A DNA stretch of 64,000 nt, taken from Incurvaria masculella (Eukaryota > Arthropoda > Insecta > Lepidoptera > Incurvariidae). The stretch covers positions 9,563,001 to 9,627,000 of the forward strand of contig OX335656.1 of assembly GCA_946894095.1 (NCBI GenBank), given 5' to 3'. Position numbers and translations under genes: made by a program. Shown here piece by piece: positions 1 to 15,788 of the stretch. Below the pieces are notes generated by a model. That model was not told the origin of the DNA. It ran no database searches and was given only the letters and a program-made list of their open reading frames with translations. Position 1 is the first letter of the stretch, and each line of letters opens with the position of its first letter.

Positions 1-299
1 GAGGCGAGCAGCGCGCCCGCCCACGCCGCCACTAGACTGTGCCGCCACTAGACCGCGCCGCGCCCGCGCCTCGCCCGTCACGCACAGCGGCTTCGGCACC
101 GCGTAATATCTGAAACTGTCTCACCCCGCGACGTCCGGATGCTCCTCGACGTGGAAGATGCAAGCCTGCGGCACGGAGGCGAGCAGCGCGCCCGCCCACG
201 CCGCCACTAGACTGTGCCGCCACTAGACCGCGCCGCGCCCGCGCCTCGCCCGTCACGCACAGCGGCTTCGGCACCGCGTAATATCTGAAACTGTCTCAC

Positions 300-443
300 C
301 CCGCGACGTCCGGATGCTCCTCGACGTGGAAGATGCCAGCCTGCGGCACGGAGGCGAGCAGCGCGCCCGCCCACGCCGCCACTAGACTGTGCCGCGCCTG
401 CGCCTCACCCGTCACGCACAGCGGCTTCACCACCGCGTAATAT
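300..443 (-). pseudogene. Frame-preserving duplicate of AKHR exon 3 (copy c)
   Basis: Lies exactly 509 bp from copy b and appears identical in coding sequence (VVKP, QARHS, PQAGIF). Acceptor and donor dinucleotides are kept. The near identity of the 509-bp blocks points to very recent duplication or to a local assembly duplication. Confidence 0.6.
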
Positions 444-808
444 CTGAAACTGTCTCACCCCGCGACGTCCGGATGCTCCTCGACGTGGAAGATGCAAGCC
501 TGCGGTACGGAGGCGAGCAGCGCGCCCGCCCACGCCGCCACTAGACTGTGCCGCCACTAGACCGCGCCGCGCCCGCGCCTCGCCCGTCACGCACAGCGGC
601 TTCGGCACCGCGTAATATCTGAAACTGTCTCACCCCGCGACGTCCGGATGCTCCTCGACGTGGAAGATGCAAGCCTGCGGCACGGAGGCGAGCAGCGCGC
701 CCGCCCACGCCGCCACTAGACTGTGCCGCCACTAGACCGCGCCGCGCCCGCGCCTCGCCCGTCACGCACAGCGGCTTCGGCACCGCGTAATATCTGAAAC
801 TGTCTCAC

Positions 809-952
809 CCCGCGACGTCCGGATGCTCCTCGACGTGGAAGATGCCAGCCTGCGGCACGGAGGCGAGCAGCGCGCCCGCCCACGCCGCCACTAGACTGTG
901 CCGCGCCTGCGCCTCACCCGTCACGCACAGCGGCTTCACCACCGCGTAATAT
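809..952 (-). pseudogene. Frame-preserving duplicate of AKHR exon 3 (copy b)
   Basis: A 159-bp monomer without the 16-bp insertion, so the receptor frame is open from YYAV to HPDVAG. It differs from the 1318-1461 copy by VVKP for VLKP, QARHS for RARRG and PQAGIF for PQACIF. The acceptor TTTCAG and donor GTGAGA are both present. It could be an alternative exon 3 or a passive duplicate. The intron to the next copy would be only 15 nt, so copies could be chosen but not joined. Confidence 0.6.
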
Positions 953-1317
953 CTGAAACTGTCTCACCCCGCGACGTCCGGATGCTCCTCGACGTGGAAG
1001 ATGCAAGCCTGCGGTACGGAGGCGAGCAGCGCGCCCGCCCACGCCGCCACTAGACTGTGCCGCCACTAGACCGCGCCGCGCCCGCGCCTCGCCCGTCACG
1101 CACAGCGGCTTCGGCACCGCGTAATATCTGAAACTGTCTCACCCCGCGACGTCCGGATGCTCCTCGACGTGGAAGATGCAAGCCTGCGGCACGGAGGCGA
1201 GCAGCGCGCCCGCCCAGGCCGCCACTAGACTGTGCCGCCACTAGACCGCGCCGCGCCCGCGCCTCGCCCGTCACGCACAGCGGCTTCGGCACCGCGTAAT
1301 ATCTGAAACTGTCTCAC

Positions 1318-1461
1318 CCCGCGACGTCCGGATGCTCCTCGACGTGGAAGATACAAGCCTGCGGCACGGAGGCGAGCAGCGCGCCCGCCCACGCCGCCAC
1401 TAGACCGCGCCGCGCCCGCGCCTCGCCCGTCACGCACAGCGGCTTCAGCACCGCGTAATAT
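1318..1461 (-). CDS. AKHR: AKH/GnRH-type receptor (AKHR-like GPCR), exon 3
   Basis: This internal exon encodes the end of the DRY motif, ICL2, TM4 and the start of ECL2. The acceptor is ACTTTCAG and the donor is GGG|GTGAGA; the exon is 144 nt. Its first base completes the Arg codon opened by exon 2 (AG|A), giving D-R-Y-Y-A-V, then L-K-P-L, a basic ICL2, a hydrophobic TM4 (WAGALLASVPQ) and IFHVEEHPDVAG. This is the expected order in adipokinetic hormone receptors, where TM4 is followed by a PQ..FH.E.HP segment. It is the copy of a GC-rich tandem array nearest intron 2, and it lacks the 16-bp insertion that shifts the frame in most other copies. The exon ends in phase 2. Later exons (TM5-7) lie outside the window. 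Corazonin or ACP receptor is the alternative identity; the exon-1 motif favours AKHR. Confidence 0.82.
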
Positions 1462-1848
1462 CTGAAAGTGACATGGTTCTATGAAAATCCTGTCTTTCAC
1501 ATGCAGTTCAATGTAAAATATACTTTTACATTTATTTATTTATTTATTTATTTTACAAAAGGTACGCCAACAGTGTACACACGAAAACTTTATATAATAG
1601 CAAACATAGTGGGGGGCACATTCCTGGTGTGCATACCAATTATAGGCGAACACAACATTTCAGAACAGTGTCTAACACCGAGTGCACAATTTAAACATAT
1701 TTAATAAAAAAAATATATAATAAGTTGAAAACATCATAAATGAGAGAGTCTACAATATGACAACAAAAGTAAAAAAACCAAAGTAAAGGAAAAATAAAGA
1801 CAGTTGAACAGCAGTTGAATGACGGTTGAGATTTAATGATTTAATGAT

Positions 1849-4730
1849 TCACAGTAATGCCTTGTAAGTCAATGCACAACGCTTAACACTACTTAGTTGG
1901 TCTTGAAATATGTCCACATCTGTGTTATGTGTGAGTTCATTAAAATCTTTCATTATTCTAGGAAGAGTTGCATGCCGACCTAAATTGGTGTACGTTCTGG
2001 GAACTTGGAAGATTCTACTATGTGTTCTTGAATTGGTGCGTGGTACTGTAAAGTTCAGCTCAGTTACTAGATTGGGACAGTCAATAAGGTTATTAGCGAG
2101 CTTGTATAGGAAAGTCATATCCAGCATAAATCTGCGGCTAGAAAGAGTGTCAAGACCAAATCTATCCAAGCGATCATTGTAGCTTGCTCTGTGACTGATG
2201 CCCGTAGTGTGAAAAGCTAGGTGTCTTGTGAAGTCGCGTTGGAGTTTTTCTATTCTGTTCCCGTACTTCTCATAAGTCGGGTTCCAGACAACACAAGCAT
2301 ACTCCAACCTTTTGACTCCAACACACTTCTTGCATACACTTGATACAGCCTTACTTTTGTTTGAGGATTTCTAAAATCCTTGCTGTTTCGTTTGATGAAG
2401 CCAATCAATGCAGATGCTTTTTTTATAATATGTTCGATATGAGAAGAAAACCTAAGTTGACTATCTACTATGATACCTAGGTCACGAATTTCATTGACTT
2501 CTTTTATAACCTCGTTTCCAATCTTGTAACATGAGTTAATGTAGTTGCGATTGCGCGTAAACTTTATATGAAAGCATTTGCTTGCATTAAGTGACATGTC
2601 ATTTAGGGTACACCATTCGCATATTTTAATGAGATCTTCCTGCACGAGTCGAACGTCATCAGATGAACAGATTTTTCTATAGATCTTAAGATCGTCAGCA
2701 AAAACAGAGCAATTTGAGTGTTTAACAACTTCCACAATATCGTTTATAAATATTATAAACAGGATAGGACCCAGATGTGAACCTTGCGGTACCCCTGAGG
2801 TGGCAACATAGTGCATTGAGTCATACCCATTTATAACTACTTTTTGTACTCTGTTTGTGAGGCAAGATTCAAACCACCGATGAAGAGTTCCACATATGCC
2901 AAAGTTAATGAGCTTGTTCAAAAGAATTTTGTGATTTACTTTATCGAATGCACTGCTAAAGTCCGTATACACAGTGTCTACTTCAATGCGTCTGTCGACG
3001 TATTTGGTGATGCTGGCTAGGAAATTAACGAGATTTGTTGCAGTGGATTTGTGATTTTGAAAGCCATGTTGTGCAGGGTTAATTAAGTGTTTGGTGTACC
3101 AGGTTATTTTTGGACAGATGAGGGCTTCAAATAATTTTGAAAAAGTTGAGAGTATTGATATAGGCCGATAATTTTTCACTTCTTCAGCGTTTCCTTTTTT
3201 AAAATGGGCACTATTCGTGCCTCTTTCCATCTTTGAGGAAAACTTCCTGACTCGAGAGATTTATTAAATAATAATGTCAAGGGGTAGGCAAGATATTTGG
3301 CGCACCTTTTTACAAACAAGGGCGGGATATCATCGGGACCAGAACTTTTGTACACATCTAGGTTTTGTAATATTTTCAATACTTCACGCTCGTGGATCGA
3401 GATGTGATTGAGGCATATGGAGTTTGGTATATTTGGGAATGGCTCGGAGATTCTAGGGGTATTATTACCAAACGTAGAAGAGAAATGTTCTGCAAATAAG
3501 TTTGCGACACCTTCACCAGTAGATGATTTAGTTTCGTTGAAAACCATCTCGGCTGGAAACGAGTTAGATTCCTTGCGTTGACTTTTGAGGTAACCCCAAA
3601 AAGCTTTGGGGTTTTTCCCGATATCCTGTTCGATATTATCTCTGTAATTCCTGTAGCATGAGGAAAAAAGCTGATCACTACGATTTCTTAGAAGGATGTA
3701 TTCAAGTTTGTCACGCGGATTTTGGAATTTTTTAAAACGTGTCCTGACCTTCTCCTTCTCTGACAAGAGCTTTATTAATGCTTTATTAAACCAGGGTGGA
3801 TATTTTTTTGATTTTTGTTTGCGAATAGGCACGTAATTATCAATCACGCACTGAATGTTTGCATAGAATTTATCAACCATGGATTCCACATCGGGGCAAG
3901 AGGAAAACTCTTTAAGCCAGTTTAGCTGGTCTAGCTCAGAAAAGATTGATGTATAGTCAGCTCGATAATAATTGCGCCTGCTCCTTGGTGCACTATCAAG
4001 AATATTTATTCGCTCAAAGCATAAGGATAACTCTAATTGGGGATGCTGTGGGTCAAGTTTGCTGAGAGCGTCCAGCGGTTTTAGTAGTTTAACACCATCT
4101 ACAAGATTTGTCATAACAAGATCAAGGGTTCGTTCATTACAGTTCTGAATGTGATTGACTTGATGGAGATGATTAAGTGACATGAAATCGATAAGAGCAA
4201 AGCCCAATTCATTATTATAGTTATGTGGAAGGAGATAAGTAGATTTTGTTTCAGCTTTCCAAGAGATTGAACTTAAATTAAAATCGCCAAGAATAACCAT
4301 GTGGTCGCACATCTCAGATATGTTATTTGCATTTTCTAGGAATGCGTGCAATGTGTTGAGTTTAGGTGGAGGAGGAATATATACGACACCAAAAGCAATT
4401 TTTTTTTTACATCTGAATTGGAATCAACTAGAACCCACAAGTCTTCACAATCATTTTCCATGGAATGCACAGCTCTAGAAGATATATTTTTTAAGACTGC
4501 GATGAGAACTCCGCCTCCATTTTTATTATTGTTAATACTACAATTCGAGCGATCTTTGCGATAGACGTTGTACCTGGAGTCAAATAACTCACAACTAGCT
4601 ATTTCGGGTCTCACCACGTCTCTGTTAACACAATAATATCGTAACAATGTTTCAAGACTTCATGCTTAATGTTCACAGTTTTTGTCCTTGTACCTCTAAC
4701 ATTTTGATAGTAAATGTTGAATTTTGAGTA
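1849..4730 (-). pseudogene. LINE ORF2 (endonuclease-reverse transcriptase), four frameshifts
   Basis: The endonuclease begins about 4725 with NIYYQNVRGTRTK and IIVLTETW. A frameshift near 4615 leads to GGGVLIAV, and another near 4345 leads to VILGDFNLSSISW, the catalytic GDFN motif. RT follows: SSGPDDIPP, then after a shift near 3200 FSKLFEALI, YTDFSSAFDKVNHKILLNKL, SGVPQGSHLGP and the catalytic FADDLKIYR. A last shift near 2290 opens the thumb/C-terminal part (ACVVWNPTYEKYGNRIEKLQ). The FADD box and overall layout place it in the CR1/Jockey group. The breaks mean no activity. Confidence 0.93.
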
Positions 4731-4771
4731 GTAAGATCAATCAGCACGCACATTAATCGATAATAATGTTT

Positions 4772-5804
4772 TTATAACTGGTTCAAAAACTGCACACTCC
4801 GAATCTGAATGGCTTGAGAAGATTCATCCTTTCGCATGAGTATTCTACCATTACGGACCCATACATACTTGAAACCCTTTTCTCTGCCCTTAAGTCGAGC
4901 AGCGGCGTGCAGGGACTTATTGGCTGGAGATAGGTGCTCTGACAGAAATACTGGTACCCTGTCGCCGCCGATGCCAAGGTGGCTTGTGTTGAGCTTGTTG
5001 TCGGAGTTGGCCTTGTTAAAGCTAGAGACAGCAGCCAGAAGCCCGTCGCGGCAGCGGGGACTGCGCATTTTTACGACGATTGTGCGCACCCTATTGCTCT
5101 CGGTATTCACTTTAGCCACCCGTGTACACATTAGGATGTCTTCATCGGCTACTGGGTGATTAATAGCTCGGCCTAGCTGAAGGATGGTGTTTGGTAAGTT
5201 TTCGGCCTTGTGTTCTGGGAGCCCGTGGATCTCAACATTTGAGTCGCGCGAGTGCTGCTCCATCAGGCTCAGGCGAGAAGACAGGTCATTGACAGTCTTG
5301 TGAAGGCTTTCATTTTCGGAACGCAGTTTGTTGACTGTTGCTTCAGTAGACTGCAAAGTTTTTTTCAAATCTTCATACTGCGAGCAGATAAAATCGGTCG
5401 ATACCTTTAAGTCTGATAGTAGCGATAGATCTTTTTTAATGGCTGCTATGAAGTTGCGTATGGTTACGGATAACTTCGTCTGGATAGCTGATTCGATTTC
5501 AGATCGGATCGTCTCTCTGATTTTGTTGCTAATGACATCATCTCTGACCAGCAAAAGACTCTCATCTGCGAGGCAATCTCCGCTCGTGATGCCTTGGTTG
5601 TCGAATGTTAGTTAGTACTTCAGAGGATTTTCTAGTACCTTTTTTACATTGGGGACATTTCCATGAGGCTCGGACTTCTTTGGACTGCTTCTTGAAGTTT
5701 TCTAGAGTGATTTGGACGCAGTTGTGGTGAAATATTCCTTTACACCCGGAACAAGTGATTTTTTCCGTTGATGCCACCTGCTTTTTGCATTGGTCGCAGT
5801 TCAT
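4772..5804 (-). pseudogene. LINE ORF1 (PHD finger, coiled coil), frameshifted
   Basis: The first 80 residues hold a Cys-rich finger (CDQCKK, CSGCKGIFHHNC, CPQCKKG) of PHD-like spacing, as in ORF1 of CR1-clade elements. After a frameshift near 5610, the second part (about 260 codons) has heptad-like Leu/Glu/Lys sequence (KTLQSTEATVNKLRSENE) and then an RNA-binding-like C-terminal region (FLSEHLSPANKSLH, KYVWVRNGRILMRKD). ORF1 proteins of this kind coat the element RNA. The two parts read as one ancestral ORF broken once. Confidence 0.85.
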
Positions 5805-5884
5805 GCTTGCAAGATTAATGAAGCTTACAGATGTATTTTGCGATTGCGATAAATAACGATTTCATATGAAAAAATATATATATA

Positions 5885-5968
5885 GATATATTGTTCCAGT
5901 CAGGATTCGAACTTGGACCTCTCGCACCGCTTCAAGTGGAACGCCTTAACTTCTCCGCCACCGGTTCG
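5885..5968 (-). repeat. tRNA-Ser-like SINE head or tRNA relic
   Basis: Read on the minus strand it has GGTGGCGGAGAAGTTAAGGC, resembling a serine-tRNA D-arm/A-box, then GTTCCACTTGAAG with TGA in the anticodon position, and the B-box AGTTCGAATCC. The acceptor stems do not pair and no CCA-flanking structure is seen, so this is a tRNA-derived element and not a functional tRNA gene. The 5969-6338 stretch beside it holds nothing I recognise. Confidence 0.5.
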
Positions 5969-6340
5969 ATGACGTTGTTAGCATAAACATCGATCATTAC
6001 AGTCGTCCGCGCTGAAGTTTTTGAACAGAAGGCGAGGGTAGAACGTAGAAATAACGCGCCGCGAACACAGTAATTATGCTAGCGCGGTGCTAGCAATAAT
6101 TTTAATGAAGAGTTTTGCACTGTTTTTCTTGAATTCACGAAAAATACTACTGTGATTCTAACAGCTCGTTATTCAATGAACACAATAATGTAAGTTTTGT
6201 ATTGAAATATTTACTTCATACACAATTAGCAATTAGTTTTTACTGAGCACTCAATGCACACACCCACTTCTCTCGAACGAACGAACGATTATCATTGAAC
6301 TGCTAATAATATATAATAAGCTTTAGATCTATGTAGTAAG

Positions 6341-6493
6341 CCCCGATTGCACGAAGAGACCGCCGAGTTTATCAATGTTCAATCACGTCACTTTTAGTGA
6401 ACCACATGGAGTTCCTTCCATACTGTTCATGCAAAGTGACGTGTTTAATCGTACGTTGACGTTGATTTTTTGTCCTTTCGTGCACTCGGCCCT
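6341..6493. mobile_element. Short foldback MITE, family A (copy 1 of 5)
   Basis: A roughly 150-bp non-coding unit with ends GATTGCACGAAGAGAC and CTTTCGTGCACTCGGCCC, plus inner inverted blocks CACGTCACTTTTAGTG and CAAAGTGACGTGTTTAA. The same unit recurs at 11261-11378 (partial), 13009-13159, 38123-38279 and 50007-50168. Confidence 0.75.
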
Positions 6494-6699
6494 AAGCAAG
6501 TAGGTCGATTTTTTAAACGAATTGATTTTTATCGTGAATCGATCGTAGACGGGCTTAGCCCTACCACCTAGAATGGAATATATAGAAATGGCTACCGCAG
6601 AATGGGGTAGCTCGCATTTATGACGAAATACACATGTCCAACTCAGAAAGGGTAAGAAAATGATGCATACACGAGGTGGGATTAAGCCCATGAGGGTTC

Positions 6700-7110
6700 A
6701 ATCCACTTTTTTTTTTATGCGACCTGACATGGATGGCTAATACCACACAACTACCGTCATGATATTAGCCCAATACACCACATTCCCGAAGGAATTAGGT
6801 GCCATGCCAGGACCTTCCATTTATGAGCACGGCTACATTGAACTGGATGGAAAACACGGACAATTTTTCATTGCCGCTTCGACCATCTTTTCATCCAATG
6901 CGATGGTACCAACCCGGACGGGCTTAAACCCTACCACCTAGTAGGGGAAGGGGACCTACAGTTTTACATGGATTCCGAACCATGGAGGAGCTCGCATTCG
7001 TGACGAAATGCACTTATCGAACTCTGAAAGAGAAAGACAGTGGTGCAAGTTGGTATTGAACCCGGGCCTCTGGTACGCTAGGCCAGTCCCAGCGCCACTA
7101 GGCTACGAGC
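6700..7110 (-). mobile_element. SINE family S, tRNA-headed copy (full length)
   Basis: Read on the minus strand: a tRNA-like head with a Trp/Ala-like A box (GGCTCGTAGCCTAGTGG) and a B box (GGTTCAATACC region), a linker (CTTTCTCTTTCAGAGTTCGA), then a body with GTAGGTCCCCTTCC, ACCATCGCATTGGATG, GAAGCGGCAATGAAAAATTG and CCGTGTTTTCCATCCAGTTC, a tail GTGTGGTATTAGCCATCCAT and a terminal A-run. At least 15 related copies or fragments lie in this window. Confidence 0.85.
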
Positions 7111-7149
7111 CGCTCGATGATATAGATTATAGATGCACTCAAGTTATAC

Positions 7150-7412
7150 AATTTAAAAAAACAGGCCAAGTACTCGCACACGAAGGGTTCCGTACCATTA
7201 TATTTGACACAAAGAAATCAAGTTTCTTGTATGGTGGGCCCCTTTTGTATTTTGACTATTTATCGTTATTAGCGGCAAAAGAAATACACACTCTGTGACA
7301 CCTTCAGCTGTCTACCTATTACGGTTCAGGAGCCCTGTGACAGACGGACGGACAGACGGACGGACGGATAGCCAGCGGAGGCTTAGTAATAGGGTTCCGT
7401 TTGGCAACATAA
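7150..7412 (+). repeat. Interspersed repeat family G (GTACTCGCACACGAAGGGTTCC)
   Basis: Starts near GGCCAAGTACTCGCACACGA, passes GCGGCAAAAGAAATACACAC and ACCTATTACGGTTCAGGAG, has a (GACG)n-like stretch, and ends in GCTTAGTAATAGGGTTCCGT. Related copies: 33647-33950, 49715-49920, 52043-52340, and fragments at 51515-51570 and 59173-59235. It is a common lepidopteran repeat by my recollection; I do not assign a class. Confidence 0.75.
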
Positions 7413-7964
7413 AATACTCTATTCTACTCCGAGAATTGAATCAATGATCGGCGCCACGAAATCACAATACTAGAACAAACCACCATTATGTGAATGCTTA
7501 TACCGGGTTTAGTGTGGGTGGATATTTTGTGTTAGTATACTTCGCCTACCGATATTTTCGAGAGAATTTAAAGATACTTATAAATTACAATTCAAAGGGT
7601 TTCAAAGAATTACTCGGAACGAGAAAGGGACGGTCGGTTAGCCGCAAAACTTTACGAAATAATCTTTCAAGTATCGAGAAACACTCAACGTAAATGAATG
7701 AATGGTGCTTTAAAATATGGGGCTGGTAGATTGTTATTGGGAAAAATATTGTTATGATTATTATATTATTATTTTTTCGACAGCAGTTATTTTATTAAAC
7801 AGCCTACGGGCCTTTGAGGCCATGATTATGTAAATATCTTGCTGGCGACCCACGAAATAAGATCGACATTATCAGCCCCTGGGAGTCCTGAGGCGGAATG
7901 TTCGATTTGTGAAAGCTAGAAATAATACATATTTTATAAAATAAATTGCTAATCGGGTACTTAC
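7413..7964. other. Intron 2 of AKHR, no recognisable element
   Basis: AT-rich sequence between family G and the exon 2 donor. The small open frames here have no recognisable similarity. Confidence 0.6.
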
Positions 7965-8113
7965 CTGTCGACGGAGATGCAGACTAGCACGAAACTTGAC
8001 AAGTAGAGACCGAACGTTCGGGTGAACATCATGGCACGGCACATGAAGTCCCCCGCCCACCAGCTCACCGTCGCGGCCCACGCGATCTCTAGCGGCATCA
8101 TGAGGAACGTCAC
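7965..8113 (-). CDS. AKHR: AKH/GnRH-type receptor (AKHR-like GPCR), exon 2
   Basis: A 149-nt exon between the acceptor ATCACAG|GTGACG and the donor GACAG|GTAAGT. It encodes 49 residues plus two bases: the end of TM2 (VTFLMMPLEIAW), ECL1 with the conserved Trp (ATVSWWAGDF), the TM3 Cys that would bridge to ECL2 (FMCRAMMF), TM3 (FGLYLSSFVLVCISVD) and the first two bases of the DRY Arg. The order and the MPLEIAW/GLYLSS motifs match insect AKH receptors. It starts in phase 0 after exon 1 (IADLL|VTFLM) and ends in phase 2, matching exon 3. Its 5' half has been duplicated about eight times upstream in intron 1. Confidence 0.87.
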
Positions 8114-8575
8114 CTGTGATCAAATATCATTACAATGTGTATGTGGTTGGGGCGAAAGGAACATCATTCCAGGTGAAATTGAAAAATTGTTTAACATTAT
8201 AATTTAACTAGCTGCAATAAACATTTCCCCTGACACACAACACAAACATACATTTCTCAAATTAACAAATTAACTCACCATCATTTTTCACCTAACTCCC
8301 CTTCCTACCTCCTCTTACACATCCACTCATATTGGCATGACTTTATTCAGCTTGCCATATAGTAAGTGTGCGTTCACCTTTTTTTTAACAATTCTATGTC
8401 GAATTCCGCCTACTACTCAGAATTCAGTTCTTTTGTAGGCTGCAGTTATTTTATTAACTTGTTCACCCATCACATCCAATACTTGTTATTGTTAAATGTC
8501 TAATCTTAAGTTAATAATGTTTCTAATCATGTAAATGTCTGTTTGTTTGATGAAATAAAAATACTACTATACTAT
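8114..8575. other. AKHR intron 1, with possible retroelement 3' end
   Basis: The first 60 bases on the minus strand form the native sequence upstream of the exon 2 acceptor and are the source of the array spacer. About 8440-8575 reads like a LINE 3' UTR (many AATGTCTAATC and TGTAAATGTCTG words, ending AAATAAAAATACTACTA). No ORF is present. Confidence 0.45.
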
Positions 8576-9650
8576 CATGGCGCGGCACAAGAAGTCTCCG
8601 GCCCACCGGCTCACCGTAGCGGCCCACTCGATCCGTAGGGAATCATGAGGAACTTCAGTGATCAAATATAATTACAATGGTGATGTGGTTGGGGCGCAAG
8701 AAATATCAAGGTGCCGCACAAGACGTCTCCGGCCCACCGGCTCACCGTAGCGGCCCACTCGATCCGTAGGGGAATCATGAGGAACTTCAGTGATCAAATA
8801 TAATTACAATGGTGATGTGGTTGGGGCGCAAGAAATATCAAGGTGCCGCACAAGACGTCTCCGGCCCACCGGCTCACCGTAGCGGCCCACTCGATCCGTA
8901 GGGGAATAATGAGGAACGCCAGTGACCTAATATAATTACAATGTGGATGTGGTTGGGGTGCAAGGAACATCATGGCGCGACACTAGAAGTCTCCGGCCCA
9001 CCGGCTCACCGTAGCGGCCCACTCGATCCGTAGGGGAATCATGAGGAACTTCAGTGATCAAATATAATTACAATGGTGATGTGGTTGGGGCGCAAGAAAT
9101 ATCAAGGTGCCGCACAAGACGTCTCCGGCCCACCGGCTCACCGTAGCGGCCCACTCGATCCGTAGGGGAATCATGAGGAACTTCAGTGATCAAATATAAT
9201 TACAATGGTGATGTGGTTGGGGCGCAAGAAATATCAAGGTGCCGCACAAGACGTCTCCGGCCCACCGGCTCACCGTAGCGGCCCACTCGATCCGTAGGGG
9301 AATAATGAGGAACGCCAGTGACCTAATATAATTACAATGTGGATATGGTTGGGGTGCAAGGAACATCATGGCGCGACACTAGAAGTCTCCGGCCCACCGG
9401 CTCACCGTAGCAGTCCACCCGATCCATAGGGGAATCATGAGGAACGTCACAGACCAAATATAATTACAATGGTGATGTGGTTGGGGCGCAAGAAATATCA
9501 AGGTGCCGCACAAGACGTCTCCGGCCCACCGGCTTACCGTAGCGGCCCACTCGATCCATAGGGGAGTCACGAGGAATGGCACTGACCAAATTTAATTACA
9601 ATGTGGACGTGGTTGGGGCGCAAGGAACATCATGGTGCGGGATCATGAGG
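8576..9650 (-). repeat. Tandem array of truncated AKHR exon 2 copies
   Basis: Eight copies of a 129-136 bp unit; unit starts are near 8576, 8711, 8843, 8972, 9108, 9239, 9368 and 9504, and a ninth is broken at about 9632. On the sense strand each copy has intron 1 sequence (CTTGCGCCCCAACCACATC, TATTTGATCACTGAAG) and then about 65 nt of exon 2 (FLMIPL, WAATVSRWAGD) before jumping back to intron. TM3 and the donor are missing, so these cannot replace exon 2. Every third unit matches best (period about 396 bp), a higher-order pattern like that of the exon 3 array. Confidence 0.93.
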
Positions 9651-9865
9651 TTTCATATCTTAATTTTTTTATAAAAAAGATTTTATGATCATACGCTGCG
9701 TTTGCATTGTTCGGAAATTACCGTCTTCATCACTACATAGTATAAAACAAAGTCGCTTTCTCTGTCCCTATATCCCTATATCCCTATGTATGCTTAAATC
9801 TTTAAAACTACGCAACGGATTTTGATGCAGATAGAGATAGAGAGAGATAGAGTGATTGAAGAGAA

Positions 9866-10386
9866 ATGTTTATATGTATAATAACATCCATTAACGTCCT
9901 TATATATAACGTGAGGAAGACAGAGGTCGTCCTCTTCAAATACAGAGGCGGCCCTGACAATATCCCGCCAATAATTTTGCGTGATTCTCCATTGAGAATT
10001 ACTACAAAATTCAAATATTTAGGGCACGTAATTACAGACAGACTGACAGACAATGAAGATATAGAACGACAGCACCGCGCAATTGCGATGAGAAGCAATA
10101 TGCTCGCCCGTCGTTTCTCGCAATGCTCCAGGCGTTCTATACCGCCGCATTATGGTGCCAGTACACGCAGCGTGCACTGCACTCGCTGTGGGTGCAGTAT
10201 AATAACGCTCTGCGCAGCTTGCTGCGCCTGCCGTGGCGGTGTAGTGCGTCTGGCATGTTCGCAGAAAACTGGCTTGACGACTTCTTTGCCATCGTCCGCA
10301 AATCCAAAGCGTCTCTTCTGGAGCGTGTGGCATCATCTCTTCTCTACTTATATAAAAGGGAACGTCTGTCTACATGTGAGAGGTAA
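9866..10386 (+). pseudogene. Non-LTR reverse transcriptase C-terminal fragment
   Basis: One frame gives KTEVVLFKYRGG, then TTKFKYLGHVITDRLTDNED and AIAMRSNMLARRF. After a frameshift near 10110 a second frame gives AFYTAALWCQYTQRALHSL and NNALRSLLRLPWRCSASGMF. The KYLGHVI motif and following helical thumb are typical of the region after the RT catalytic core in LINEs. The N-terminal RT is absent, so this is a 5'-truncated relic. Confidence 0.72.
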
Positions 10387-10690
10387 TCTCCGTAACTACA
10401 AAACAGATCAAGATGTGATTTAAACCAATTTAAAGAGCACATCGCTGGGAACGCTTTAGTGTACAAACCATCACGCTAAATATCCAAAGGGCTGAGCAAT
10501 ATCTATGAAATTACTCTCAAACAAAATTAATACCACGCCGTGGCGTATGGTGGCGTTACTTGCGACGTCATTCAACGATTCACTATTTTCGCACTGTTCA
10601 GAAAGCGGATGGCGCAGGGCGGAATAACGACTCTTCTATGCGTATTTTGTTCGGGAGGCTGTAGGTTCGAATCCTGATAGCCTCAATTTT
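10345..10690 (+). repeat. tRNA-like-ended repeat family T, copy 1
   Basis: Shares with copy 2 the order TTATATAAAAGGGAACGTCTG, GGTAATCTCCGTAA, AGGGCTGAGCAATATC, GAAATTACTC and TGGCGTA, and a 3' tRNA-like module (GGATGGCGCAGGGCGG as A box, GTAGGTTCGAATCCTG as B box) followed by a T-run. Confidence 0.65.
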
Positions 10691-10751
10691 TTTTTCGTTT
10701 TTTTACAGTTTATTGTTTATGTTTATAATAATTATAGCATGGATTAGACTT

Positions 10752-11110
10752 ATCTCAACTTATATAAAAGAGAACATCTGTCCACATGTTCGAGGTAAAC
10801 TCCGTAATAAATATTATATATTATATAAAAGGGAACGTCTGTCTACATGCGTTTACACATGCAAGAGTTTACAGAAAATATCGCTGGGCTCACTCTAGGA
10901 TACATACCATCACGCTAAATATTCTAAGGGCTGAGCAATATCAATGAAATTACTCCATCCCGTGGCGCATGACGGCGTAATTTTGCCAGAACCGATTAAC
11001 ATGGAAAGCCGGTTGGCATAGCGCGAATAATCGACTGTTTCGAATATATTTTGTTCGAGGGAGGGTTCACGTTCGAATCCTGAAATCTCAATATGTTTTT
11101 CTGTTTTTTT
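10752..11110 (+). repeat. tRNA-like-ended repeat family T, copy 2
   Basis: A direct repeat of copy 1 at about 410 bp distance: TTATATAAAAGAGAACATCTG, GGGCTGAGCAATATCAATGA, GGTTGGCATAGCGCGAATAA and the B box ACGTTCGAATCCTG, then T-rich sequence. The leading motif is itself repeated at 10818. Confidence 0.65.
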
Positions 11111-11260
11111 TTATCTCGCATATAATTATAACATGGATTCGACATAATAGATCTAATTTTTTTTTCTGGTTTTTTTACGTAATAGTTTAATAGCAAAACT
11201 ATTTTCCTAAGGAACAATTTTAATTCATGGTAGTCAGTGCGAGAAATTTTGTTCCCGAGT

Positions 11261-11378
11261 ACGGCTGAGTTAATCAATGTTCAAACACGTCACTTTTAGC
11301 GAACCGCATGGAGTTCCTTTAATACTGTCCATACAAAGTGACGTGTTTAATCATACGCTGACGTTGATATTGATATGC
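11261..11378. mobile_element. MITE family A (copy 2, 5' part lost)
   Basis: Keeps AATCAATGTTCAAACACGTC and CATACAAAGTGACGTGTTTA. The outer GCACGAAGAG end is missing on the left. To the right, 11380-11650 carries CGATTAGAAGTTGTACACCG and GTATGGGCCAGAACAG, words shared with the palindrome at 24988-25342. Confidence 0.6.
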
Positions 11379-11789
11379 AATTCCTTTCGAAACTTTGGGC
11401 GAAGACGTTGGATTTATAGCGCCATCTCTACCCGGATAGAGGCGTTTATTTAGTTCATTAGTATTAGCGATTAGAAGTTGTACACCGTTATATTGGTTAT
11501 ATCGTAGATGGCGCTGTAAATTCTGCAAATATTTTCGCCGCAACTATTTACTATGGCATTATATAACTTTATAATTATATTATTTGCTTTTGTGTACAAA
11601 CACTTTGTATGGGCCAGAACAGGATTAAATTAGGCATAACTATCTTTTGTCTGAAAGAAAATCTTGAAACGTATAAAAATGTGTATGGGTAACCCATTAT
11701 ATCTTCAAACTAGGTATAAGGAAACGCACCTGTTTTTTAATTAATAGTTTCTATGGTTTGGTCAAGAAAATATAATTATAATTAGTTGA

Positions 11790-11817
11790 TATATATATAT
11801 ATATTTAGTTGGAAAGG

Positions 11818-11852
<35 letters not shown>
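11790..11852. repeat. (TA)n microsatellite
   Basis: Two uninterrupted TA runs separated by TTTAGTTGGAAAGGATTT. Confidence 0.9.
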
Positions 11853-11855
<3 letters not shown>

Positions 11856-12116
11856 GTAGTAGGAAATATATAATTAGTTGATATTTAACGACGAATTCGA
11901 TCTCACTCTTACTTGAATGGGCCCCCTTGCAAAATTAAGAGAGTGGTGTGCAAATAAGCAGTGGTATGAAATGCTTATAAAAGTTCCACGTCTAGCCTGA
12001 TTCTGCTCACAACTTAAAAGCTACATGAAATAACTCTTAATTACCAGAGCGGTGAGCATTAGGGTGAAATGCTTATAACTTGAGAACCACTCACCCGATT
12101 TATATGCGAATTGTAT

Positions 12117-12400
12117 CTACGTTTGGCATCTCTGAGTGCACTCGAGTTACGGATGGGTGACCGTTTTAGGTGTTGAGGCTGGCTGTGTTTTGTATAGAGG
12201 CGTATGTCCAGCAGTGGACGCAATCATACTGACTGACTGACTGACTGACTGACTGTGTTTTGTATGCCACGTAAAACTTTTGTTCACCTTTCGTAGGGTT
12301 AATTCCACCTGGGATGGGATGATACATACCATCGTATTGAAGGAATGCATAATCGGGGCATGAATATTGTCGTGTTTTAGATCCATTTGAATGTGGAAGT
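12117..12400 (+). mobile_element. SINE family S, old 5S-headed copy with nested insertion
   Basis: GAGTTACGGATGGGTGACCG is a decayed 5S-like head, then GAGGCTGGCTGTG. A LINE-3'-end-like piece (GCGTATGTCCAGCAGTGGAC) with (GACT)n at 12226-12255 interrupts it. The body resumes as GCCACGTAAAACTTTTGTTC, GTAGGGTTAATTCC, TACCATCGTATTGAAGG and GATCCATTTGAATGTGG. Confidence 0.6.
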
Positions 12401-12401
12401 G

Positions 12402-12758
12402 TCATTGCGGGAAGATCCTGGTGAACCTAGTACTCTTCGACAGCCTCTTCTGGTGATGACAATCGTTGGCCACGTATTGGTTAATACATTTTGGGAACAG
12501 AATAATGTCACAAGGTGCCAGGTCGGGACTGTATGCAGGATAACTCATAAGTTCTACGTTTTTTACCTTTGAAAATTCGTATGTCTGCATGGCCGTCTGA
12601 GAACTGGCATTGTTGTGATGCAAGATGGTGCTGCGTTTACTGTTATTTTTACGGAGTTCGTCATTTACTTCCATCAAACAGATGGTGTTCTTCAAATCAC
12701 TATTCACAGTCTCCAAAGCAACAGTCTGCATGCCTGTCTGTTTCATTTTACGGCGCAC
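12402..12758 (-). pseudogene. mariner transposase C-terminal relic
   Basis: The frame shows HHNNASSQTAMQTYEF and then YPAYSPDLAPCDIILFPKC, the last catalytic region of mariner (DD34D) transposases. The usual HDNA Asp is Asn here (HNNA), and the N-terminal DNA-binding domain and first catalytic Asp are absent. It is a dead fragment. No paired TIRs could be placed. Confidence 0.75.
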
Positions 12759-13008
12759 ATCATTTATCTTTTTGTTGTATAAAGCTTACTATCACAAAAT
12801 TAGTCACAAGATTGACGTGATAGTCGCCTTTCATAGTGTTTCATCGCCAAAAGCAGTTTGAAGCCGAGCAAGGCTTTGTAAACTGTCAAATTACCCTTAA
12901 AATCGTATAAAATCATACTACGAAAATTTTCATAAGTTAATACCATGGTGATATAGACACGCATTTTTCGCCACAATGCAAAAACAAACAAGACAAAACA
13001 GCCTAAGA

Positions 13009-13159
13009 ACCGATTGCACGAAGAGAGGGATAAATAAACAATGTTCAAACACGTCACTTTTAGTGAACCGCATAGAGTTCCTTCCATACTCTCTATGCAA
13101 AGTGACGTGTTTAAGTTGACGATGATTTAGATTTTTTGCCCTTTCGTGCGCTCGGCCCT
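13009..13159. mobile_element. MITE family A (copy 3)
   Basis: CGATTGCACGAAGAGAGGGA to CCTTTCGTGCGCTCGGCCCT, with the inner GTCACTTTTAGTGAAC and AAGTGACGTGTTTAA blocks. Confidence 0.75.
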
Positions 13160-13324
13160 TTGCGTTATAGTACCAAAATATTTAATTACTTTTTCGATAT
13201 TTTTTAGCTAAGTGGGCAGTTCCGAAAACTTATAGTGTGCCCTATGTATTATAAATGAAAATGTTATAATTTTTCTTATTTAATTAAGCTATATCGGCTC
13301 CATCCGTTATGATTAAAAAGTAGC

Positions 13325-13445
13325 AGATAAATTACATCGCTAGCCTTTTCGACTAGCCATTTGGGCTACTTTTTATCTTCTAGGAAATAATTCAGTTCGG
13401 CATCAGTGTAAAACGACATGGACCCGAGCGGAGCCGGGTACCGCA
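13325..13445 (-). repeat. Interspersed repeat family C (CCCGGCTCCGCTCGG)
   Basis: On the minus strand it starts TAGCTGCGGTACCCGGCTCC and continues to GAATTATTTCCTAG. The same lead occurs at 25499-25615 and 51348-51485. Confidence 0.65.
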
Positions 13446-13800
13446 GCTATCTAATAATAAAATTGTTAAATGTATTTCTGATTATTTATATTATTGTGAT
13501 TTTATTTTGGTTTGATCTGTTAATGCATGCTTTAATGTAATTTTAAATGTAAAATTTTAATATAAACATAGAACTATGTATTTTAATCTCTTTCTTGACA
13601 TTTTATAAATTTTATAGACATTTTATAACTCTATTTTATTTCGATTTGTTTGATTTTGTCTGTTTTACTTGAATTTGAATTTTTTTATAAATCATGTAAA
13701 TACATTTTTTAGGTCTATTATGTTGATGAATTACTGTTTATTTCATGTATTTAGGACTGTGTGCCTCAATAAAACATTATTATTATTATTATTATTTTGA
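13446..13800 (+). repeat. Probable LINE 3' UTR with (ATT)n tail
   Basis: AT-rich, non-coding, with a polyadenylation-like CAATAAAACATT directly before (ATT)6. I cannot assign the parent element. Confidence 0.45.
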
Positions 13801-14639
13801 ATGATTAAATGGTATTAATTTATTTGATAACATTAACAAATGAAAATTATATCATTATTAAATAATGGAGAAATACTATTATTTTTGAGGTTTCCAATGT
13901 GATGTCGTAAAAAAATATTTTTTTTCCGCTTACATTGCAAACGCAGGCTGAACCCTTCGAGATTTATCAAAATAATGTACTAAGTATTGTACACATTGAA
14001 AAGGTCTACAGAAAACTCCGCGATGGTATATGTCTATCTCTTATGGATATCCCACAATAACATTTTTTGTCATTTACTTTTTACAACAAATAATGGCTAA
14101 TTTTCGAAGCGATTTTAACCAATACAGCATTCATCATTATACAATTAAATACCTTAAATACATTGTTGATTTAATATAGAACTATATGGCCCGTTACAAC
14201 ATATGATTTAAATGAATATTTTCAAAGATATTACAGATTTAAAAATTGCGGGAAGTAGCGTTTGCGGCGGTACCGACCGGCCGGCCGGGGAGGCAGGAGC
14301 GTGCCTATAAATGGTACGTCGGAGGCCGCGGTTCTCCCTATAGCACTTTGAATTTAGCAGCGATCGGACGCGTTTATTATCAGAGCTCTCTAATATTTAA
14401 TAATCATCTAATAATAACATCTAAGATTTTTTTTATTTCAAATATTTCAATGTAGGACTAGGTTAGGTAGGAAAAGGGTTTATTTGTGTATCATTGTGTC
14501 AAAATAATATTTTGTTAAATGATATTATGCCCGTGCAAAGCCGAGACGTGCTGCTAGTACTATTATACAAGGCTTAAAAACGACACTAAATTGGCAATCA
14601 AATAATCTGGATTAGAAACTCCGACATTCGAATTGCATA
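13801..14639. other. AKHR intron 1, unannotated stretch
   Basis: Mostly AT-rich. A small GC-rich patch at 14260-14340 (GGTACCGACCGGCCGGCCGG) has no recognisable coding content. Confidence 0.5.
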
Positions 14640-15527
14640 ATGTACGACGCTCATGCGTCGAATTGTCCGGGTGCATCCCTAATATTAGGACTATCCGGTT
14701 TATGGAACGTCATCTATTAACAAAACATACCAATCGATCGGCAATCGCCAAATGCATCAGCCAGAAGTCGAGCCTGGAGGCGCGTGCCGCCCGCCTCCGG
14801 CGCAGCAGCAGCGACAGCACCGTGAGGTTGCCCACCGCCGACATCAGCATCAACACAGAGTACACGCCGATAGACACCACGTGCCGTGGTTGAACTGCAT
14901 GTTGATGGGCAGCTCATGCATCGAGCTGTTCGGGTGCGTTACTTCTCCAAATACTATCCGGCTACAAGGAACATCATTCATTAACGGAACATACCAACAG
15001 ATCGGCGATAGCCAAATGCATCAGCAAGAAGTCGAGCCTGGAGGCGCGTGCCGCCCGCCGCCGGCGCAGCAGCAGCGACAGCACCGTGAGGTTGCCCACC
15101 GCCGACATCAGCATCAGCACAGAGTACACGCCGATAGACACCACGTGCCGTGGTTGAACTGCATGTTGATGGGCAGCTCATGCATCGAGCTGTTCGGGTG
15201 CGTTACTTCTCCAAAGACTATCCGGCTACAAGGAACATCATTCATTAACGGAACATACCAACAGATCGGCGATAGCCAAATGCATCAGCAAGAAGTCGAG
15301 CCTGGAGGCGCGTGCCGCCCGCCGCCGGCGCAGCAGCAGCGACAGCACCGTGAGGTTGCCCACCGCCGACACCAGCATCAGCACAGAGAGAGTACACGCT
15401 GATGGACACCACGTGGCCGTGGTTGATCTGCATGTTGATGGGCAGCTCGTGTGTCGCGCTGTTCGGGTGGATTACTACTACAAAGACTATCCGGCTACAA
15501 GGAACGACATCCATTATCGAAACATAC
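14640..15527 (-). repeat. Tandem array of AKHR exon 1 copies
   Basis: Three copies of a 264-266 bp unit (donor-side markers AACATACC at about 14724, 14988 and 15252) plus a decayed fifth fragment at 14640-14720. A unit starts at the HPN..THELP codons, runs through TM1 and IADLL, keeps the donor GGTATGTT, and adds about 70 nt of intron before the next copy. The copies at 14750-14940 and 15014-15205 lack one base (CACGGCACGTG for CACGGCCACGTG). The copy at 15278-15465 has an extra TCTC after GTGTACTC. All are therefore frameshifted. Confidence 0.93.
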
Positions 15528-15788
15528 CAACAGGTCGGCGATCGCCAAATGCATCAGCAAGAAGTCGAGCCTGGAGGCGCGTGCCGCCCGCCGCCGGCGC
15601 AGCAACAGCGACAGCACCGTGAGGTTGCCCACCGCCGACACCAGCATCAGCACAGAGTACACGCTGATGGACACCACGTGGCCGTGGTTGAACTGCATGT
15701 TGATGGGCAACTCGTGCGTCGTGTTGTTCGGGTGCATCCATTCCTTCTGCGCGGCCCCGCCGGTGCCGGCCAGTTTGTCGTTGTCCAT
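15528..15788 (-). CDS. AKHR: AKH/GnRH-type receptor (AKHR-like GPCR), exon 1 with start codon
   Basis: 87 codons from ATG (context GCGAAGATGG) to IADLL, ending at the donor TTG|GTATGT in phase 0. The N-terminus has an NNTT glycosylation sequon, then the AKH-receptor signature HELPINMQFNHGHVVSISVY. TM1 follows with the class-A GN..V motif (SAVGNLTVLSLLL), then a very basic ICL1 (RRRRAARASR) and the start of TM2 (FLLMHLAIADLL, containing the conserved LAxAD). The product would be a plasma-membrane receptor for adipokinetic hormone, which mobilises fat-body stores. It is the only undamaged copy at this locus. An upstream non-coding exon cannot be excluded. I am confident of the AKH/corazonin/GnRH family and fairly confident of AKHR itself. 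Confidence 0.85.

What the first reader, a model, noticed from the sequence alone, without database searches (positions are those of the whole stretch)
1..15788. Three consecutive exons of one AKHR-like receptor gene have each been tandemly amplified
Exon 1, exon 2 and exon 3 of the same minus-strand GPCR gene each lie beside their own tandem array (264-266, 129-136 and 159/175 bp units), and the intervening introns are not amplified. The arrays differ in unit length and breakpoints, so they arose independently, yet all contain exon plus splice-site sequence. At least one intact copy survives for each exon. I know of no general process that targets exons this way. Possible explanations are a hotspot linked to the high GC of these exons, selection for alternative TM/loop modules, or systematic mis-assembly of a polymorphic region.
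Basis: partly seen in the sequence, partly recalled or inferred. Interest (0 to 1): 0.88.

Follow-up and report, generated by a model that had tools for sequence, protein, structure and literature searches.

The report
Exon-seeded tandem arrays in moth genes
In one moth genome, short exons of a hormone-receptor gene, of a related receptor on another chromosome and of a neighbouring transporter gene have spawned rows of decaying, mostly unusable copies right beside the working exon, which suggests that exons themselves can seed repetitive DNA.

Summary
The minus-strand gene is the only close AKHR homologue found in this genome, with an open seven-exon, 380-aa frame. Exons 1, 2 and 3 each carry their own local tandem array (264 bp x3.9, 132 bp x8.1, 159/175 bp in a 509-bp higher-order repeat). 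The exon-3 array runs 623 bp beyond the window. Exon 7 has a fourth array (~70 bp x6.3) and exon 4 one degenerate copy; none was found for exons 5 and 6. It is not AKHR-only: a related receptor on another chromosome has three exon-derived arrays (one inferred from its translation), and the neighbouring SLC1 gene has two decayed copies of one exon. Sixteen matches in other receptor genes and five in an SLC1 paralogue have none. DNA searches found the four AKHR arrays nowhere else. Most copies are frameshifted, truncated or without an acceptor, so they look like by-products, not alternative exons; mis-assembly is unlikely. Best reading: short, GC-rich exons seed minisatellites by local DNA duplication while selection keeps one intact copy. 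The trigger (recombination, replication stalling, microhomology) is not shown, and how common this is genome-wide could not be measured.

The parts
15528..15788 (-). AKHR exon 1, intact (start codon to TM2 region, donor GTATGT)
   Evidence: homologues
14649..15735 (-). Exon-1 tandem array: part of the intact exon, then 3 further copies (93-94% identical to exon 1) and one 29-bp piece; 264-bp unit; c2 has a 4-bp insertion, c3 and c4 a 1-bp deletion
7965..8113 (-). AKHR exon 2, intact (acceptor CACAG|GTGACG, donor GTAAGT)
8574..9639 (-). Exon-2 tandem array upstream of the exon: 8 units of 132 bp (first ~89 bp of exon + ~43 bp of intron 1), 76-86% identical to exon 2, 396-bp higher-order repeat, acceptor not kept
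8168..8573 (.). 406-bp stretch flanked by a 5-bp duplication (ATGAT) between the array and exon 2; read as an insertion, so that exon 2 was the last unit of the array
   Evidence: nature of the insert not tested
1318..1461 (-). AKHR exon 3, intact, 144 bp, phase 2/2
1..1467 (-). Exon-3 tandem array (continues to -623): 11 full-length further copies + one 49-bp piece in all; 8 copies carry a 16-bp internal duplication (frameshift), 3 stay open; donor and acceptor of neighbouring copies 15 bp apart

Best explanation
These are exon-seeded minisatellites. In this moth, short exons of several genes (GC-rich islands in AT-rich introns) have repeatedly undergone short local tandem duplications of about 70-265 bp whose source segment included part or all of the exon and a little intron. 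Unequal exchange then expanded and homogenised the copies into arrays with higher-order repeats. One copy, at an edge of the array, stays intact because selection on the protein keeps it; the other copies decay. SHOWN: local, co-oriented arrays of different unit length, boundary and divergence at AKHR exons 1, 2, 3 and 7; a decayed exon-4 copy; arrays at two exons, and a third exon-like array, in a receptor gene on another chromosome; two decayed copies of one SLC1 exon; mostly broken copies; an open receptor frame; no copies elsewhere for the four AKHR arrays. INFERRED: DNA-level slippage or unequal exchange as the mechanism, lack of function of the copies, and GC content or a related property (recombination, fork stalling, microhomology) as the reason why exons are the seeds.
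For: Arrays and copies. Other genes: SLC1 exon with copies at +147 and +296 bp (79% and 74%); C18 receptor with 104 bp x4.4, 139 bp x7.2 and 134 bp x4.4 arrays. Broken copies: 8 of 11 full-length E3 copies frameshifted by a 16-bp duplication, 3 of 3 longer E1 copies with a frameshifting indel, 8 of 8 E2 copies without the acceptor; the 3 open E3 copies share one set of six changed codons, 5 of which change the amino acid. Higher-order repeats of 509 and 396 bp point to unequal exchange. Open 380-aa AKHR frame, its 324-aa core 69-73% identical to moth and butterfly receptors. GC3 of exons 1-6 is 0.84 (E6 as first modelled) against 0.40 GC for the 93.8-kb region. GC of amplified vs non-amplified exons, p=0.005, 9 vs 14. 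Locus-specific arrays. Base rate: no array with period >=60 and >=3 copies in 144 kb from 26 other loci of this genome.
Against: GC-rich exons without copies exist (SLC1 n1 0.68, SLC1 d 0.67; other receptor matches at 0.62-0.63), so GC is not sufficient. No junction could be resolved to a clear microhomology: where I looked (E1, E2, E3) the flank at the array end is itself exon-like. The controls are small and mostly long receptor matches. Non-exonic tandem repeats also occur: 3 of 8 tight local duplications in the 93.8 kb are not exonic, and of all 17 local duplications within 1.5 kb only 5 are (my sorting); the controls hold arrays of shorter period (L049 50 bp x14, L047 48 bp x4, L016 40 bp x5.1). 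Of six SLC1 exons looked at, only one has copies. Three of 11 E3 copies remain open with both splice sites, and the C18 TM5 copies keep an acceptor, so some use is not excluded.
Confidence: 0.65

Rival explanations
1. Ascertainment of an ordinary background: minisatellites arise everywhere, and those at exons are noticed, or survive better because deletions that reach into the exon are selected against.
For: Other tandem duplications exist in the region and the controls. Tandem exon duplication is a long-known process (passages read in PMC6071210, which cite Kondrashov & Koonin 2001).
Against: All 4 arrays with period >=60 and >=3 copies in the 93.8-kb region involve AKHR exons; none in 144 kb of controls; copies at 5 of 7 exons of one gene and three arrays in a second gene is more than sporadic. 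The thresholds were set after seeing the arrays.
Confidence: 0.2
2. Functional alternative exon modules of Dscam type: the copies are mutually exclusive exons that diversify receptor loops or helices.
For: E3 is a symmetric 144-bp exon (phase 2/2); 3 of 11 full-length E3 copies are open with donor and acceptor. The C18 TM5 copies keep an acceptor, and 5 of the 6 further matches are 92-97% identical in protein over 37 aa.
Against: E3 copies are 15 bp apart, too short for an intron between them; read through, that gap gives a TGA in frame. E1 copies lack an acceptor, E2 copies lack theirs, E7 copies are pieces of the last exon with its stop, 8 of 11 E3 copies are frameshifted. The open E3 copies differ mostly by amino-acid-changing substitutions.
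Confidence: 0.06
3. Assembly artefact: repeated or polymorphic exon sequence falsely expanded by the assembler.
For: 509-bp units of the E3 array are nearly identical (98% matches, copies at 100%), a type that assemblers can mis-count; 8 of 11 E3 copies differ from the exon by only 2-4 substitutions plus 16 bp.
Against: E1 copies are 93-94%, E2 76-86%, E7 77-78% identical to their exon; the arrays have different unit sizes and one is separated from its exon by a stretch with a 5-bp flanking duplication; the same occurs on another chromosome. The assembly is 31 contigs of 552 Mb.
Confidence: 0.05
4. Decay of a redundant or relaxed receptor gene: AKHR is losing function here and its exons are crumbling.
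For: The protein is only 69-73% identical to other moth and butterfly AKHRs, which sit on shorter branches.
Against: A complete 380-aa frame with GT/AG splice sites and conserved receptor motifs (the E6 donor, GTGTGC, is weak and set by frame and homology); no second close copy in the genome; in the tree it branches outside the 14 other moth and butterfly sequences, as an early lineage would. The SLC1 and C18 genes show copies too.
Confidence: 0.04

Closest known systems
Tandem exon duplication / mutually exclusive exons (Dscam, srp; Kondrashov & Koonin 2001 as cited in PMC6071210, passages seen)
   Same: Local head-to-tail copies of single exons, several exons of one gene affected independently.
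   Different: Those cases are exon copies tied to mutually exclusive splicing; here most units are partial exons, with 15-bp gaps, broken frames or missing splice sites, and minisatellite-like homogenisation.
Minisatellites / internal tandem repeats in genes (PMC2812944; one-line abstract and section headings seen)
   Same: Tandem units of tens to hundreds of bp and copy-number growth within genes.
   Different: Here the unit is repeatedly founded on an exon or exon edge, at four exons of one gene and three array sites of a related gene.
CeRep25B minisatellite near alternatively spliced regions of C. elegans (PMC4039745; abstract and headings seen)
   Same: Minisatellites over-represented near exons of certain genes.
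   Different: CeRep25B is one named repeat found at many genes; here each array has its own, exon-derived, locus-specific sequence.
Insect AKH receptor genes
   Same: Protein and exon-wise homology to moth AKHRs.
   Different: I saw no report of exon arrays in AKHR; one search for AKHR with exon, intron and Lepidoptera listed 3 papers, none on this by title or abstract start.

Membership tests
Lepidopteran AKHR | Closest homologues are AKHRs, near full-length coverage | tested here: met
   the best 15 of the 120 listed hits are 14 named moth or butterfly proteins of this family and one unnamed record, 69-73% identity over 98% of the query; tree groups it with those used (14 rows, one unnamed), support 100/100
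Lepidopteran AKHR | Single intact orthologue in the genome | tested here: met
   the hits outside C16 among 53 listed are 21-56% identical; open 380-aa frame
Lepidopteran AKHR | Responds to adipokinetic hormone | not testable with these tools
   needs a receptor assay
Mutually exclusive exon cluster (Dscam type) | Copies in frame with both splice sites | tested here: not met
   E1, E2, E4 and E7 copies fail; 3 of 11 full-length E3 copies pass
Mutually exclusive exon cluster (Dscam type) | Copies separated by introns long enough to splice | tested here: not met
   E3 copies 15 bp apart; E1 spacers about 56 bp without acceptor
Mutually exclusive exon cluster (Dscam type) | One copy per mRNA | not testable with these tools
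   no RNA data
Minisatellite | Head-to-tail array with homogenised or higher-order units | tested here: met
   509-bp and 396-bp higher-order repeats
Minisatellite | Copy number varies between individuals | not testable with these tools
   one assembly only
Dispersed satellite or transposable element | Unit found at many places in the genome | tested here: not met
   only this locus for the E3, E2, E7 and E1 arrays; the tool warns that very common words are skipped and only best candidates scored; C18 and SLC1 units not searched

The most novel reading that the evidence does not exclude
Exon-seeded satellite birth is a general, ongoing process in this moth lineage: meiotic breaks (or replication stalls) concentrate at short GC-rich exons, raise their GC3 by biased gene conversion and repeatedly spin off local arrays with units near nucleosome size (most units 104-175 bp), so that exons are the nurseries of new repeats.
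Probability: 0.27. Interest if true: 0.82.

Novelty: new variant of a known kind. Interest (0 to 1): 0.66.

Why it matters
Where new minisatellites come from is an old question. A genome in which separate arrays of different divergence start from exons of several genes makes it testable: one can date births, compare exons with introns, and relate array birth to recombination maps, nucleosomes and GC-biased conversion. It also warns that gene predictors and exon-capture data may misread such genes, and it is raw material from which alternative exons could arise.

Tried and rejected
Rejected: dispersed satellite or transposon origin of the AKHR units; AKHR pseudogene; alternative exon cassettes for E1, E2, E7; artefact. 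I first read the exon-2 array junction as a 9-bp microhomology (ATGATGTTC; notebook) and withdrew it: the flank next to exon 2 is itself the end of the last array unit, cut by the 406-bp stretch, and the 5' flank of the array is also exon-like, so the ancestral junction cannot be read. A 13-mer (ATGATGTTCCTTG) shared by the E1-array and E2-array spacers is weak: random 264-bp and 132-bp segments of the region share a 13-mer in 0.36% of 20,000 draws, before counting the pairs looked at; of six array pairs, E1-E2 share five 11-mers and the other five pairs none.

Led nowhere: seven literature searches gave, in the listings I saw (some capped: 20 of 435 papers, 12 of 261, 15 of 21), no paper on exon-derived arrays at several exons of one gene. 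Of papers I saw only passages of PMC6071210, the abstract and headings of PMC4039745 and the one-line abstract and headings of PMC2812944. A genome-wide survey by protein families was planned; PF00001, PF00209 and PF00002 searches did not complete. Two families were: PF00375 (10 hits) and PF00003 (18 hits). Neither list shows two nearby hits on mostly the same profile range, but the PF00375 list also missed the known SLC1 copies, so this is no real test.
Full report
WHAT IS THERE. The window is C16:9,563,001-9,627,000 of a 552-Mb, 31-contig genome. A minus-strand gene runs from 15788 to about -4405 (left of the window; L006 position = window position + 9800). Its seven exons join into one open frame of 380 aa (exon ends set by eye from splice sites and homologues; the E6 donor is the least sure). 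The 324-aa core hits moth and butterfly AKHR-type receptors first, 69-73% identical over 98%, and sequence comparison of its first 185 aa with solved structures gives GnRH, oxytocin and vasopressin receptors first. It branches outside the 14 other moth and butterfly rows compared, one of them unnamed, so the species is probably an early-branching moth; I could not name it. No other locus of the genome matches Bombyx AKHR comparably.

THE ARRAYS. With exons as BLAST queries against 93.8 kb: E1 has 3 further copies (93-94%) and a 29-bp piece; E2 has 8 copies of its first ~89 bp (76-86%); E3 has 11 full-length copies (3 of 144 bp at 95%; 8 of 160 bp at 87-89%, that is 2-4 substitutions plus a 16-bp duplication) and a 49-bp piece; E7 gives 3 significant matches (77-78%) inside a TRF array of about 6 units of 70 bp that begins in the last codons and includes the stop; E4 has one degenerate copy in two pieces (89% and 79%), which the wider self-comparison did not list; E5 and E6 have none at this sensitivity. 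So 5 of 7 exons have local copies. Directions differ: arrays lie 3' of intact E1, E3 and E7, but 5' of intact E2. A 406-bp stretch flanked by a 5-bp duplication separates the E2 array from exon 2; if it is an insertion, exon 2 is the array's last unit. Higher-order repeats (509 bp in E3, 396 bp in E2) show later exchange among units.

ARE THE COPIES USABLE? Mostly not. E1 copies have no start codon or acceptor and carry indels. E2 copies lack the acceptor and end inside the exon. Eight of 11 full-length E3 copies have a 16-bp duplication that shifts the frame; three are open and keep both splice sites, but neighbours are only 15 bp apart and reading on through that gap meets a stop. The three open ones share the same six changed codons, five of them changing the amino acid, so they look like copies of one decaying unit.

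NOT ONLY THIS GENE. The next gene that I recognised to the left on C16 is an SLC1-type transporter (PF00375 hits). Its 192-bp exon at L008 8048-8239 is followed by two decayed copies at 147 and 296 bp (79% and 74%; the first has an in-frame TAG by my reading); five other exons of this gene that I looked at have none. On C18, a receptor whose exons match AKHR at 37-56% (that these hits are one gene is inferred from order and strand) has a TM6 exon followed by a 104-bp x4.4 array, a TM5 exon preceded by a 139-bp x7.2 array, and a further 134-bp x4.4 array. I read the last as TM4-exon units from its translation; its intact exon lies outside the DNA I hold. Two further exons of the C18 gene have no copies. 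The C18 gene is probably the ACP or corazonin receptor; that is recalled knowledge, not tested.

CONTROLS. Of 18 other receptor hits (16 from other genes, 2 from the C18 gene), none has a local copy at DNA level or protein level; most of these matches are long, 315-1014 bp in 16 of 18, and some contain stops, so they are not all single exons. An SLC1 paralogue on C1 has no copies of its five PF00375 matches; two non-coding local duplications are there. In 26 control loci, 144,233 bp, no array has period >=60 and >=3 copies, though arrays of 40-50 bp period occur; in the 93.8-kb region there are four, all at AKHR exons. The thresholds were set after seeing the arrays. In the unbiased self-comparison of the 93.8 kb there are 17 local duplications within 1.5 kb, 5 of them exonic; of the 8 with unit offset <=300 bp, the same 5 are exonic (my sorting). 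Four stretches fetched later from the same chromosome, 10 kb each (L051, L052, L056, L057), show several duplications, mostly two-copy, and one 70 bp x2.5 array, none of which I could assign to an exon.

WHY EXONS? The amplified exons are richer in GC: 9 amplified (0.57-0.72) against 14 not amplified (0.45-0.68), one-sided Mann-Whitney p=0.005 (values rounded, one amplified value measured on the array, and the 16 matches in other receptor genes left out); with the first 18 exons alone p=0.029. GC3 of AKHR exons 1-6 is 0.84 in a region of 0.40 GC. This fits recombination-linked GC enrichment with array birth by faulty repair, or fork stalling at GC islands; neither was tested. Unit sizes are mostly 104-175 bp, near nucleosome or Okazaki-fragment size; that comparison is recalled and speculative.

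VERDICT. The feature is real, unlikely to be an artefact, and seen in three genes on two chromosomes of this genome. The mechanism most likely is local tandem duplication founded on exons, followed by unequal exchange, without function for most copies. That it is a genome-wide process is possible but unmeasured here.

Noticed in passing
window 1849-5861 (minus strand): Non-LTR retrotransposon in AKHR intron 2: open frames with reverse transcriptase (PF00078), endonuclease (PF14529) and Baculo_FP_2nd domains.
   Followed up: partly
L057 4226-5023 (+): An uninterrupted reading frame that looks like a UMP-CMP/adenylate kinase directly downstream of a long LINE-like frame; possibly a retrogene (read by eye).
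   Followed up: no
L055 2569-2595: Two different exon-derived arrays (134-bp TM4-type and 139-bp TM5-type) abut each other, so the stretch between these exons seems filled by arrays.
   Followed up: partly
window 8973-9633 and 14977-15241: 13-mer ATGATGTTCCTTG occurs exactly five times in the window, all in the E1 and E2 arrays, and once with one mismatch next to exon 2 at 8167; a weak hint of relatedness.
   Followed up: yes
L049 5458-6155: 50-bp x14 tandem array, 95% matches, on C18, not checked for coding origin.
   Followed up: no
L008 2785-5664 (minus): 959-aa open frame that looks like a retroelement reverse transcriptase, between the two genes (by eye).
   Followed up: no
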